64,000 nt of DNA, taken from the IMG/VR virus record IMGVR_UViG_3300009285_000883, positions 1-64,000 of that record. One strand, 5' to 3'. This DNA comes from a virus. Position numbers and translations under genes: made by a program. Below, piece by piece: positions 29,606 through 34,231 of the stretch; the stretch's first letter is position 1; the number at the start of each line of letters is the position of its first letter. The notes below the pieces were generated by a model. It was not told the DNA's origin and ran no database searches. It worked only from the letters and a program-made list of their open reading frames with translations.

Positions 29606-31135
29606 TTAACCGTTTTGCATGGCGTTCAGCTCGCGCCCGAGATTCTCATCACGTGTCGCTTCGGCAGTCAGAATGAACACGCCACGCTGTTTGGCATGCT
29701 CGTGAATGAACTTGCGGTTCCACACGTCCACGCCTTCCCACGCCTCCTGCGGAATGAACAGCAGACCACCCTGGCCGACGCGCTCAACACCGATCTCAAT
29801 GGCGATAGCCCATTTTTCCGTGGCACTCAGCTCGTGATACGGGGCCCACGTGTCTTTGCTTTCCACGAAGCCATACACACGCTTTCCACCGGGCTCCGTG
29901 GCGATCTTGACCCACTTCGATTCGATCGCGTCCGACAGCACGTGATCGGTAGCAGAAGCGATATTACGGAGTTTTTCCGCCGTCTCGCGCCGCATCGCCG
30001 CCGAGTCCTCGAACGCCTTGACGGACGCTTGTTTCATGCGCGCATCCCGCACGCGCACGCCATCCTCCATTGCCGACTTGGCCGCATGAAACGCGACCTT
30101 CCACTCCTCGATCTGCTCGGGCGTCGGACACTCGTACTCCTCAGCTTCCGTAATCGCCTTGAGACAAGCAGTGCGGCGCGCCACGTGTGTTTCGACGTTG
30201 TTGGCGTTATCGCTCGCCAGCCTCAGCTCAGCGCCAGCAGTCGCGATCTCACGCTGGCACAGTGCGATCGACTGCTCCAGTTGACGAAGCTGCAACACTA
30301 ATTCGTCGTGATGCTTAATCAGACCTGCGTGTTTTTCTTCCGAGTCCTTGAGCGCCTTTTTAGCGACCTTATTGTCGGTCGGCACGTTGCGCTCATCCCA
30401 GTTCTTCAGCTCACGCTTGGCCTCTTCCGCACGCTTGGCCTTGTCCGCTGCTGTGTCCACACGCTGGCAGCCTGTGGCGTAGTTCCGCTGAGCGGTGAAG
30501 TACGCATCGTTCAGCTTCTCCGCGTCGTGCTCCTTGGTCATGTCCACCAGGGCGAGCTGCTCACGCAAGGAGTCGGCTGCCACCTGATCGCGGTCGGCAC
30601 CTCCCTCCCAAGTGCGAGCCTCAGCCTGATAGTCCCGAGCAATGCGGGTCGCCATCTCGACCAGATCCGAGCACTTGAGCGCCTCTTGCGACACGATCCG
30701 CTCGAAATCATCCTCATTGAACTCGGGGCGGGCCTCAAACAGGGCACGGTCGGCCTCCACTCCGGTCAAGGAGATGAGCGCCTTAATCCGCCGCTTGTCG
30801 GCTGCCACCTCATCCTTGACGCCGGGGTCCACCAGGGAGGCGAGGTTCAGCTTGCCCTCCAGGTGGTCACACGCGAACTCACCAGCGGTTCTGGTCTGTT
30901 TCGGGTTCAGCGACACGTGCACTCCGAGCCCGTCGATACGGCCCTTCTCCGTGCCATTACGGAGAGGTAATCCACCCTCTCCTGCTGCCACGCTAGCCAG
31001 CGACTTGATCAAGATGGACTTGCCGCATCCGTTCGGCGCCACGATGGTCGTCACTCCGGGCGACTCCAGCTTGAACGTGAAGTTCTCGATGGGGCCAAGG
31101 TTTTCGACCTCGATTTGCTGATGTTTTTCTTTCAC
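29606..31135 (-). CDS. SbcC/RecF-like ATPase
   Basis: The 509-residue protein has an N-terminal head with Walker A APNGCGKS (33-40) in an IENFTF-type context and a central coiled coil (about 170-350). The C-terminal head has LSATEKWAIAIEIGVE as the signature-like motif and GGLLFIPQEAWEGVD in place of a classical Walker B, so the acidic pair is weak. It is in the replication-recombination block and may handle DNA ends. Its start is 29 bp from the first repeat array. Confidence 0.75.
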   Translation of the reverse strand: MKEKHQQIEVENLGPIENFTFKLESPGVTTIVAPNGCGKSILIKSLASVAAGEGGLPLRNGTEKGRIDGLGVHVSLNPKQTRTAGEFACDHLEGKLNLASLVDPGVKDEVAADKRRIKALISLTGVEADRALFEARPEFNEDDFERIVSQEALKCSDLVEMATRIARDYQAEARTWEGGADRDQVAADSLREQLALVDMTKEHDAEKLNDAYFTAQRNYATGCQRVDTAADKAKRAEEAKRELKNWDERNVPTDNKVAKKALKDSEEKHAGLIKHHDELVLQLRQLEQSIALCQREIATAGAELRLASDNANNVETHVARRTACLKAITEAEEYECPTPEQIEEWKVAFHAAKSAMEDGVRVRDARMKQASVKAFEDSAAMRRETAEKLRNIASATDHVLSDAIESKWVKIATEPGGKRVYGFVESKDTWAPYHELSATEKWAIAIEIGVERVGQGGLLFIPQEAWEGVDVWNRKFIHEHAKQRGVFILTAEATRDENLGRELNAMQNG

Positions 31136-31163: not shown

Positions 31164-31690
31164 AATGGACGCTCTATCGTTCTGTTTCAATCGCGAAGAC
31201 TGGCTGCGCTCAAAGGTTATGATTCAGTCCAACAGCTTGGCTGCGCTCGTTCTTTATGGTTCAGTCTGAGAGAATGACTACGATCTGGCATTTTCGTTCC
31301 ATCATTGAATCTGACTTCGTTCTTCTATTGAGGTTCAATCCCACGGAATGGCTACGTTCATCACCGATGCTTCAGTCCCGTAAATTGGCTGCGATCCCAG
31401 AAGTTGTTTCTGTCCTTTGGTTTGTCTGCGATCGGTCAAGATGTTTCGATCAGGAGTTTTGGCTGCGATCCCAAGGCGTGGTTCTATCGCCCGAATAGGC
31501 TGCACTCTCTGGCAATGATTCAGTCCTGGACTTTGGATACATTCTCTCGACATGGTTCGATCAACCAATTTGGTTGCGCTCAAAGGGACTGGGTATCCGC
31601 AGGCTTGGCTGCGTTCAACATTGCTGGTTCGGTCTGCGGGCTTGGCTGCATTCGTCTTGTGTGTTTCTGTCGAGAAGCATGATTGCGCTC
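31164..31690. repeat. 37-bp bipartite degenerate repeat array 1 (about 14 units)
   Basis: The unit is block A, G-N-TTC-NN-TC (9 bp), eight free bases, block B, TGGCTGCG-N-TC (11 bp), nine free bases. A blocks start at 31184, 31221, 31258, 31295, 31332 and so on every 37 bp to 31663, with one 2-bp shortening near 31591. Spacer sequences differ in every unit while their lengths are fixed. The array begins with a partial B block (31164-31174) close to the ATPase start and its last B block ends on the stop codon of the gene at 31689. Confidence 0.92.
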
Positions 31691-31934
31691 ACTGTGTTGT
31701 GCGAATCTTCTTCAGTGCCTGCTTCGCCTCACGTGCCAAATTCATCATCACTTCAGGGTCATACACAGATCCCTTCAGTGCGTTGTGCATGCGAAGCACA
31801 AACATGCGCAAATGTTGCAGGTCTTCCAAGGCTATGCGCAGTTCCTCGTTGACGATCGGCAACTCCTTAGCAAGATGGTCTCGCTCGTCGCGGAGATGCC
31901 GTATCCAAGCAGCGTCAACTTTTTGTGTGGCCAT
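31689..31934 (-). CDS. Coiled-coil protein between repeat arrays, 81 aa
   Basis: Helical throughout (HLRDERDHLAKELPIVNEELRIALEDL pattern, given only in part), with a Lys/Arg C-terminus. The ATG at 31934 has GGGAG eight bases upstream, and that site coincides with the first partial B block of array 2. The stop codon lies in the last B block of array 1. Unrecognised. Confidence 0.5.
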   Translation of the reverse strand: MATQKVDAAWIRHLRDERDHLAKELPIVNEELRIALEDLQHLRMFVLRMHNALKGSVYDPEVMMNLAREAKQALKKIRTTQ

Positions 31935-31935
31935 A

Positions 31936-32012
31936 AAAATCGCTCCCAATGCGTGTTTCAATCATTGAACTTGGCTGCGCTCACGCTCTAAGATTCAATT
32001 CCTGAGCATGGC
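31936..32012. repeat. 37-bp bipartite repeat array 2 (two units)
   Basis: Partial B (31936-31946), then A GTTTCAATC (31956-31964), B TGGCTGCGCTC (31973-31983), A GATTCAATT (31993-32001) and a B start TGGCT that runs into the stop codon of the gene at 32013. Same spacings of 8 and 9 as in array 1. Confidence 0.85.
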
Positions 32013-32201
32013 TTAATGACGTTGCAGATAAACGAACCAGTTCGGCGCAGGTGTCCCTCCCCAAACGGTTCCATCCTGACGCACTAAGAACACCGGTATG
32101 TCGCGCTTGCAAAACGGACAGATGCTGTTCTTTGGAGACTCGGGCTTGCGGTCGCTCTTTTCAATGACACGACCAGTAAAGTGCCTGTAGTTGACACACA
32201 T
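32013..32201 (-). CDS. Small protein with CPFC motif, 62 aa
   Basis: One CPFC pair at about residue 28 and a Pro/Trp-rich C-terminus. The ATG at 32201 follows GGAGG encoded in the Glu-rich end of the previous gene. Unrecognised. Confidence 0.5.
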   Translation of the reverse strand: MCVNYRHFTGRVIEKSDRKPESPKNSICPFCKRDIPVFLVRQDGTVWGGTPAPNWFVYLQRH

Positions 32202-32204
32202 CAC

Positions 32205-33137
32205 TCACTCCTCCTCTTCGGCAAGAGCTTCCTCCTGCACTTCATCACGCGACCTGCGTTTGACCTTCTCACCTTCCTTGAGGTCGCGCAACGACTTCCC
32301 CGTCATCGGCCAAGGCCAATTGGGAATCTCGATGAAGTGACGGTGATCTCCGGGGCAGTGCTCGAACACGTACGGAACTGGCGGGTCTTCACCAAAGAAG
32401 TCGTAGTACATCACGTGATGCAAGTGAGACAGGAAGATCTTCACTGCAAAGCGGCGCGCACGTGCATGTAGATGGCCTGGAGGAAGCGTACCGTCCTTGT
32501 AGTGCTTGTAAGCAACTGTCGTCTTACCGACCTTCTCAGCACGCTCAGCGGCCAACGTCTTGAACTTCCCCTCACCGCTGGCAGCAATCTCCGCATCCTT
32601 GCGCTGACGATAGAGCTGCCCGTACACAGCCCCATCACGGTTCTGCGTCTTGCAAAAACTTTCTCCGCATTTAAAAGCGCATAAACAGCGAAGGAAAGCA
32701 TTCCACGGACGCGGCTTTCCCTTCTCCCAAACCATCGTCGGGTCCAACCCGGCGAACCTCCAGAAGTGTCCAGCCGTCTTGCACTTGCTCACATCCAAGT
32801 GAGAGAGAAGACCAGCAGAGATTACCGGGCCGATGCCAACCTGAGACTGCATCCACTGCCCCACCGAATACTCGCTCGCAAACGCGCCAAGAGCACGCTT
32901 GATCGCGTTTTCCACACGCGTCATTTCGTCGTTGACCCACATCAAAACGCGGCCCGGCTCACCTGCGCCAAGCGAGCGCAACTGGTTCGCAGTCGAAATC
33001 CTGTAGGCTTGGATACTGTAAAAGTTATCGACGAGATAACGAGCCTGCGCGCGATCCATGAGCCTCGACGCGGCCATGAGATCCTTTGTGAGTTTACGTG
33101 CGATTTCGATAGGTGTGTCGTAATCACTTCTGTCCAT
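32205..33137 (-). CDS. IS110-transposase C-terminal-like phage protein
   Basis: The 310-residue protein has an N-terminal helical region (1-95), then GIGPVISAGLLSHL (101-114, a helix-hairpin-helix), then HFWRFAGLDP (124-133) and RPWNAFLR (143-150). A helical tail contains HLHARARRFAVK. This order matches the C-terminal (Tnp_20-type) domain of IS110 transposases. The N-terminal DEDD nuclease domain is absent, so it cannot be a complete transposase. Similar stand-alone proteins occur in other phages. It lies between repeat arrays 2 and 3. Confidence 0.7.
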   Translation of the reverse strand: MDRSDYDTPIEIARKLTKDLMAASRLMDRAQARYLVDNFYSIQAYRISTANQLRSLGAGEPGRVLMWVNDEMTRVENAIKRALGAFASEYSVGQWMQSQVGIGPVISAGLLSHLDVSKCKTAGHFWRFAGLDPTMVWEKGKPRPWNAFLRCLCAFKCGESFCKTQNRDGAVYGQLYRQRKDAEIAASGEGKFKTLAAERAEKVGKTTVAYKHYKDGTLPPGHLHARARRFAVKIFLSHLHHVMYYDFFGEDPPVPYVFEHCPGDHRHFIEIPNWPWPMTGKSLRDLKEGEKVKRRSRDEVQEEALAEEEE

Positions 33138-33170: not shown

Positions 33171-33608
33171 TTAAAAGTTGTTGTCAATCGCGGCCTGAAC
33201 TACTGACAGCGGAATGGAACGACGCACCAGTTCCGCACACTCGCGGCGTGCTGTGGCGCGCGCGGCAGCGGCATCGGCAGCGGCATAGGCATAGGCAGCG
33301 GCAGCGGCAGCGGCAGCGGCCTTGCGAACTTGTTCGATAGTCGCCTCACCGCGCGTCCATGCTCGTGCCATCTCAATCGCCGCGCGTGGTCGATCCTCTC
33401 CCTCAGGCACGTACTTCAATGCCGTCTCGGCGCAGTCGCACGCTGCCAATACGACCAACTTGCGATCTACTCCGACGCGCGCCGCAAACCACAGCATCCA
33501 ATCGCCGCGCTCGCATTGCGCGTAGGCTTCCTCCAGCGTCTTTCCATCACACCAATTCTGCGCGTCGCAACACGCATGCAACTTGGACAGTAACCTTGAT
33601 AGGTCCAT
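33171..33608 (-). CDS. Imm5-like helical protein with alanine tract, 145 aa
   Basis: WMLWFAARVGVDRKLVVLAACDCAET and KYVPEGEDRPRAAIEMARAW (shown in parts) are the signature of a family often labelled putative immunity protein, common in phages. After VRKAAA a tract of Ala with Tyr and Asp (about 98-118) is encoded by GGCAGC/GGCATA hexamer repeats (33264-33320). The tract length probably varies between isolates. The function is unknown. Confidence 0.65.
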   Translation of the reverse strand: MDLSRLLSKLHACCDAQNWCDGKTLEEAYAQCERGDWMLWFAARVGVDRKLVVLAACDCAETALKYVPEGEDRPRAAIEMARAWTRGEATIEQVRKAAAAAAAAAYAYAAADAAAARATARRECAELVRRSIPLSVVQAAIDNNF

Positions 33609-33627: not shown

Positions 33628-34231
33628 AAAAAACGCTCCACCAAACTGCTTCAATCATTCCACTTGGCTGCGATCTGCAATATAGATTCACTAGACACTT
33701 TTGGCTGCACTCGTCTCCTACGGTTCTGTCCCGAAATGTGATTTCGATCACACGGCATGATTCATTCGTAAGACTTGTCTGCACTCTCCCAAAATGCTTC
33801 TTTCAGTTCATATGATTACGTTCCGTGTTGTTGCTTCTGTCGAGGCAGATGGCTTCGTTCATCTACGCTGGTTCGTTCGCCTTCCACGGCTTCACTCGCT
33901 CCGCGTGATTCGATCTTCTGGTGAGGTTGCGTTCGTGGCGATTGATTCATTCGTTTTCCCTGGCTGCACTCCGTGACTGTGTTTCATTCATCGACGAAGA
34001 TTGCGTTCCAACAGTATGATTCCGTCTTCGATCGCGACTTCGATCCTATGGTTTGCTTCTATCAACAAGAATGGCTGCATTCTGGGTTTATGGTTCATTC
34101 CTAAATCTTGATTTCGCTCCGCATATCTGTTTCAATAGCGCGGCTTGGCTACGCTCATCGTCAATGCAAACTCGGTGGTCCTGGCTGCGCTCTGGAGGTT
34201 TGTTGCGATCCTGTTATGTGGCTAAGCTCAG
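33628..34231. repeat. 37-bp bipartite degenerate repeat array 3 (about 16 units)
   Basis: Same unit as array 1. It starts with a partial B block (33628-33638), the first full A block is GCTTCAATC at 33648, and A blocks follow every 37 bp to about 34202, with one 1-bp shortening near the end. It fills the whole gap between the genes at 33608 and 34232. B blocks vary more here (TGATTTCGATC, TGGCTTCGTTC, TGGCTGCACTC), but the terminal TC and block lengths hold. Confidence 0.9.

What the first reader, a model, noticed from the sequence alone, without database searches (positions are those of the whole stretch)
31164..31690. A tandem array of 37-bp bipartite degenerate repeats with no known counterpart
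Seen in the sequence: about 14 units of a 9-bp block (G-N-TTC-NN-TC), exactly eight variable bases, an 11-bp block (TGGCTGCG-N-TC) and exactly nine variable bases. The variable bases differ in every unit while spacing is kept. That suggests selection on the blocks and their spacing (18 then 19 bp between block starts) rather than recent duplication. The period is not a multiple of three, so it is not a repeat in a protein. It is not a CRISPR (conserved blocks and spacers both too short) and is unlike ordinary iterons (two alternating motifs). The two blocks look related to each other (GG-T/C-T...TC), so it may be an 18.5-bp half-unit. Candidate roles are a scaffold for an oligomeric DNA-binding protein, an origin or partition site, or a processed RNA. 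This is inference.
Basis: partly seen in the sequence, partly recalled or inferred. Interest (0 to 1): 0.93.

Follow-up and report, generated by a model that had tools for sequence, protein, structure and literature searches.

The report
Phage TIGR-TasA guide RNA arrays
The odd tandem repeat is a set of guide-RNA arrays beside a TasA gene, part of the recently described TIGR-Tas family of RNA-guided DNA-binding systems, here carried by a phage; relatives of it gave plausible natural targets, in sister phages that lack the system.

Summary
The repeats are TIGR arrays (Tandem Interspaced Guide RNA; Faure et al. 2025, PMC12045711). Read on the other strand they are an 11-nt edge repeat GANCGCAGCCA, an 8-nt spacer A, a 10-nt loop repeat GANNGAANCA and an 8-nt spacer B, 37 nt in all. 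About 32 units lie in three modules. Each module is packed between a stop codon and the next ribosome-binding site of one minus-strand operon and ends in a half edge repeat. Between the modules lies a 310-aa Nop-domain protein, TasA; its model (pLDDT 90.8) matches TasH and TasR structures first and it has no nuclease domain. Of the 80 best viral loci encoding relatives (395 found), most carry such an array on the tas strand. Spacers carry no shared information, and none is shared with the closest relative (TasA 77% identical). No window guide has a target in its own genome or eight relatives. In one sister clade, the last guides of two phages match, 16 of 16 bases in the published geometry, one short element beside the cassette's own insertion point, in sister phages without Tas. 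That suggests rival targeting; it is not shown for the window.

The parts
31170..31690 (-). TIGR array 1, about 14 units (37 nt); starts at 31690 overlapping the TGA stop of the upstream ORF and ends in half edge GAGCG (31174-31170)
31941..32013 (-). TIGR array of two units: starts with half edge AGCCA (32013-32009) on the TAA stop of the upstream ORF, ends with half edge GAGCG (31945-31941)
33634..34229 (-). TIGR array 2, about 16 units; ends GAGCGTTTTTT just before the ribosome-binding site of the next gene
32205..33137 (-). tasA: 310-aa Nop-domain Tas protein without nuclease domain (phrog_4285, labelled 'transposase')
31689..31961 (-). small ORF between array 1 and the two-unit array, no family
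32013..32204 (-). small zinc-ribbon-like ORF directly downstream of tasA (weak, below Pfam cut-off)
33171..33608 (-). Ala-rich Imm5-like protein between array 2 and tasA; a similar Ala-rich ORF is also next to tasA in the closest relative G005, not found in 50 other TIGR phages
29606..31135 (-). SbcC-like AAA ATPase gene downstream of array 1 in the same operon

Best explanation
A TIGR-TasA system of a phage. The minus-strand replication/recombination operon transcript carries three TIGR modules (inferred from the layout). These are cut in the middle of each edge repeat into tigRNAs of about 36-37 nt: 5'-AGCCA, spacer A (8), loop GANNGAANCA, spacer B (8), GAGCG-3' (inferred by homology). A TasA dimer binds the repeats (box C-like CA ends, box D-like GA starts) and opens a 16-bp target in which A pairs one strand and B the other (published for TasR and TasH, inferred here). 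Having no nuclease, TasA most likely binds and blocks, or bends for recombination, the DNA of other mobile elements, above all related phages (weakest step, about even odds; supported only in a sister clade). The stated confidence is for the identity and the guide mechanism, not for this last step.
For: Tas: phmmer to TaTasR 9mty 1.3e-10 and TasH 1.1e-5; profile 8.6e-23 and 2.4e-12; AF2 model pLDDT 90.8, with the ten Foldseek hits at E<=0.001 all TasH or TasR. Array: alternating 10- and 11-nt repeats, 8-nt spacers, half edge repeats at array ends. In every array-bearing contig where a Tas gene was found, arrays lie on the tas strand (G006 also has one distant module on the opposite strand); most of the 87 Tas loci from the relative searches have an array. 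The last base of edge and loop co-varies across phages, A/A or G/G. One of the two repeats varies in length (10, 11, 12 nt) and the extra bases fall between GAGCG and AGCC(A/G), the break seen at array ends. Targets: two guides of a sister clade match sister phages exactly in the predicted geometry, 2 pairs against 0 in 60 permutations.
Against: No target was found for any of 29 window guides in its own 71.6 kb or in eight related contigs (0 of 16/16; 11 at 15/16 against 8.5 permuted, all contigs pooled). The pooled test over 1204 guide pairs shows no clear excess, and a wrong-geometry control scored as high. No terminator is predicted after the arrays on the minus strand. No RNA data. Box D here is GA, not the UG of TasR.
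Confidence: 0.9

Rival explanations
1. The blocks are DNA sites (iteron, centromere or scaffold) for a DNA-binding protein; spacers are neutral filler.
For: Location in a replication operon near DnaB and a DnaD-like loader; strict spacing.
Against: Arrays lie on the strand of a tas gene in diverse phages; edge and loop ends co-vary as a Tas dimer would require; half edge repeats at array ends; the Tas fold.
Confidence: 0.03
2. The 310-aa protein is an IS110-like transposase and the repeats are related to its bridge RNA.
For: PHROG label 'transposase'; weak PF02371 match; IS621 matches at lower score.
Against: No N-terminal DEDD domain match; TasH and TasR are clearly better matches by sequence and fold; tandem multi-unit arrays are unlike a single bridge RNA.
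Confidence: 0.02
3. TIGR-TasA, but the guides regulate the phage's own genes or host genes.
For: Arrays are inside the phage's own operon; a nuclease-free protein fits regulation; gene regulation was listed as an option by Faure et al..
Against: No self target with 15 or more of 16 matches outside the arrays; complete spacer turnover relative to the closest phage argues against conserved own-gene sites. Host unknown, so host targets are untested.
Confidence: 0.15

Closest known systems
TIGR-TasA (e.g. Flavonifractor plautii FpTIGR, Faure et al. 2025, PMC12045711)
   Same: Solo Nop-domain protein, dual-repeat array, two spacers per unit, half edge repeats at array ends, arrays on both sides of tas
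   Different: 37-nt period (11-nt edge) and 8-nt spacers instead of 9; three modules spread through one operon, one separated from tas by two ORFs
TasH of Salicola phage CGphi29 (SpTIGR)
   Same: Phage-borne; 16 nt of spacer per guide; the solved TasH structures (PDB 21kl, 9w02-9w04, 9vzx) are the best fold matches
   Different: No HNH domain here; its repeat sequences were not compared here
TaTasR (PDB 9mty)
   Same: Nop domain, dual repeats with CA-ending repeats
   Different: No RuvC domain; repeats start GA, not UG
IS110 transposases with bridge RNA (IS621)
   Same: Related Nop-like RNA-binding domain
   Different: No DEDD domain match, no single two-loop bridge RNA
CRISPR arrays
   Same: Conserved repeats alternating with unique spacers, probable guide function
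   Different: Two different 10-11-nt repeats, 8-nt spacers, no Cas gene among the operon proteins scanned

Membership tests
TIGR-Tas | Two distinct alternating repeats of 8-12 nt | tested here: met
   11-nt edge and 10-nt loop
TIGR-Tas | Variable spacers of about 9 nt (8 nt per spacer in SpTIGR) | tested here: met
   8 nt each, about 0 bits, all distinct
TIGR-Tas | Array next to a Nop-domain Tas gene, same strand | tested here: met
TIGR-Tas | Tas fold (Nop domain) | tested here: met
TIGR-Tas | Arrays begin and end with truncated edge repeats | tested here: met
   3' GAGCG in all three modules; 5' AGCCA in the two-unit module only (the two long modules begin with a whole edge)
TIGR-Tas | Terminator after the array | tested here: not met
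   none predicted on the minus strand at array ends; described as typical, not as defining, and the arrays lie inside an operon
TIGR-Tas | Box C/D ends of edge and loop co-vary | tested here: met
   A/A or G/G by phage; both repeats start GA
TIGR-Tas | Processing to 36-nt tigRNA | not testable with these tools
   no RNA data
TIGR-Tas | Dual-spacer DNA targeting | tested here: inconclusive
   no target for window guides; two guides of a sister clade match
TasA subtype | No HNH or RuvC domain | tested here: met
   310 aa, no such match in Pfam or PHROGs
IS110 transposase | N-terminal DEDD catalytic domain | tested here: not met
   no match; only a weak PF02371 stretch
CRISPR-Cas | One repeat of 25-36 nt with spacers of similar size | tested here: not met
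   no cas gene among the operon proteins scanned

The most novel reading that the evidence does not exclude
TIGR-TasA cassettes act as rival-exclusion or homing-like elements: the last guide of the array targets the DNA beside the cassette's own insertion point as it stands in sister phages that lack the cassette, while the carrier's own copy has diverged (11 of 16 matches). If general, the last guides of the window's arrays should target phages of its own lineage that lack TIGR.
Probability: 0.3. Interest if true: 0.85.

Novelty: new member of a known kind. Interest (0 to 1): 0.55.

Why it matters
Natural targets, spacer origin and the role of nuclease-free TasA are stated as open in the founding paper, and no paper found in the searched library answers them. 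This locus and the hundreds of relatives found here show array layout, processing-point variation and complete spacer turnover. One sister clade offers concrete candidate target sites, with carriers, Tas-less relatives and empty sites, that can be tested directly. Microcystis phage Mvi-JY20 and Acidobacteriaceae KBS 96 are carriers with a known host or isolate.

Tried and rejected
Rfam and tRNA scans: nothing. PADLOC: no match. Single-protein collection searches with window TasA: no relatives; the alignment found them. Self and cross targets of the nine phage contigs: none beyond permutation. Pooled target test over 2.66 Mb: no clear excess; a wrong-geometry control was equally high. Array flanks as general targets: none apart from the one clade. 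Imm5-like neighbour as a TIGR accessory gene: not found in 50 TIGR phages. One 37-nt clade of Tas: not supported, the tree needs two changes, with long branches. Collection scans with the target 16-mer and 15-mer also hit many unrelated contigs at about chance level; only those in the homologous element count.

Full report
What was checked. The window is 64,000 of 71,638 bases of an IMG/VR virus record. The 37-bp bipartite repeats are real: 14 units in 31166-31690, two units in 31941-32013, and 16 units in 33634-34229. Most block columns reach 1.6-2.0 bits; spacer columns are near zero and all 58 spacers tabulated are distinct. The same scan on reversed sequence gives no unit in any of ten contigs.

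Where they sit. All modules lie in gaps of a minus-strand operon: RecE-like exonuclease, phrog_3657 protein, small ORF, array 2, Imm5-like protein, tasA, zinc-ribbon-like ORF, two-unit array, small ORF, array 1, SbcC-like ATPase, DnaD-like loader, DnaB. Each module begins on or within a few bases of a stop codon and ends just before the next gene's start region, so the RNA strand is most simply the minus strand. Read that way a unit is edge GANCGCAGCCA, 8-nt spacer A, loop GANNGAANCA, 8-nt spacer B. The 3' end of every module is a half edge repeat, GAGCG, and the short module starts with the other half, AGCCA, as described for TIGR arrays (PMC12045711).

The protein. The 310-aa product of 32205-33137 matches TaTasR (9mty) and TasH (21kl) by sequence (profile 8.6e-23 and 2.4e-12). 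Its AlphaFold2 model has pLDDT 90.8, and all ten Foldseek hits at E of 0.001 or better are TasH or TasR; IS621 and ISCro4 come after. No nuclease domain was found, so it is of the TasA class. PHROG phrog_4285, labelled 'transposase', collects these proteins.

Relatives. A DNA pattern of the repeat found other phages with long arrays, up to 92 units. A Tas homologue lies in 8 of 11 such records, and the arrays beside it are on the strand implied above. An alignment of Tas proteins found 395 viral relatives, of which 80 loci were kept, and seven in bacterial genome contigs. Most carry dual-repeat arrays on the tas strand, usually with a 36-nt period; the window and a minority have 37, one has 38 and a few have 34. 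One repeat is GAGCG-AGCCA, GAGCG-C-AGCCA or GAGCG-GC-AGCCA: the additions fall exactly at the break seen at array ends. A mature 36-nt tigRNA is therefore still possible with a 37-nt period (inference). The last base of edge and loop changes together between phages, A/A or G/G, as a symmetric protein dimer would require. The closest phage (TasA 77% identical) shares no spacer with the window.

Targets. From the published cleavage rule the target is A + 0-2 nt + revcomp(B) (my derivation). No window guide has a match of 15 or more of 16 in its own genome outside the arrays. Over nine related contigs there were 0 exact and 11 15/16 matches, against 8.5 in permuted pairings. Over 1204 guides and 2.66 Mb of phage DNA there was no clear excess, and a wrong-geometry control scored as high.

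A clade-specific signal. In five TIGR phages with 96-100% identical TasA (G055, G039, G043, G036, G027) the last guide of G055 matches CGACTCAATCGTTTCT, and the last guide of G043 matches CGGGGCGTTCTCGTT(T/C). The two sites are seven or eight bases apart in one short element. The element lies directly 3' of the array in these phages. It also occurs in ten contigs without Tas: exact 16/16 for the G043 guide in five of them and for the G055 guide in two others plus the carriers G036 and G039. Some of the Tas-less contigs show the empty site, ATGAGCC(n)CTACCGACTC, where G043 has ATGA, then half edge AGCCG, arrays and tas, then half edge GAGCG. The carriers' own copies match at only 11 of 16. With gap 0 and pairing across the loop, exact pairs are 2 against 0 in 60 permutations, and pairing across the edge gives none. 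Caution: the Tas-less contigs were chosen because they hold the element, so their hits are not independent. The less biased evidence is the first match, its array-end location, and the second guide landing a few bases away. I read this as a credible natural target, suggestive of rival exclusion or a homing-like habit, in that clade only.

Verdict. The finding is a new member of a known kind, TIGR-TasA, with an 11-nt edge and modules spread through an operon. Processing and DNA binding are inferred by homology; the biological role is not shown.

Noticed in passing
L094:16055-18355 (contig G005, closest relative): TasA is interrupted by an intein with Hint and LAGLIDADG motifs (C...HN|C) at the conserved 'LC-CAFK' site.
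   Followed up: partly
L115:4989-6110 (Microcystis phage Mvi-JY20, PP438412.1): Unannotated TasA and a 36-nt TIGR array (ATGCGAGCC, 9 nt, ACGAAACCC, 9 nt) in a phage of a named host.
   Followed up: partly
L186:5209-5244; L163:4969-5004; L159:3750-3788; L323:9264-9311; L286, L291, L378, L402, L412, L417: Last guides of two TIGR phages match one short element beside the cassette insertion point in Tas-less sister phages.
   Followed up: yes
L018, L019, L020: Near-identical short arrays differ by loss of one period joined within the repeat, creating new A/B spacer pairs.
   Followed up: no
G006 (68 kb) and G008 (14 kb): TIGR units dispersed as several modules of 1-9 units along the contig, one module of G006 on the opposite strand.
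   Followed up: no
L100:8931-10109 and L087:15352-16347: TasA proteins with Cys-containing insertions at the same place (near window residue 118), possibly zinc-binding.
   Followed up: no
window 33262-33320: GCGGCA hexanucleotide repeat coding an Ala run in the Imm5-like gene; a longer Ala-rich ORF lies beside tasA in G005.
   Followed up: no
PHROG phrog_4285: Family labelled 'transposase, integration and excision' appears to be the Tas protein family.
   Followed up: partly
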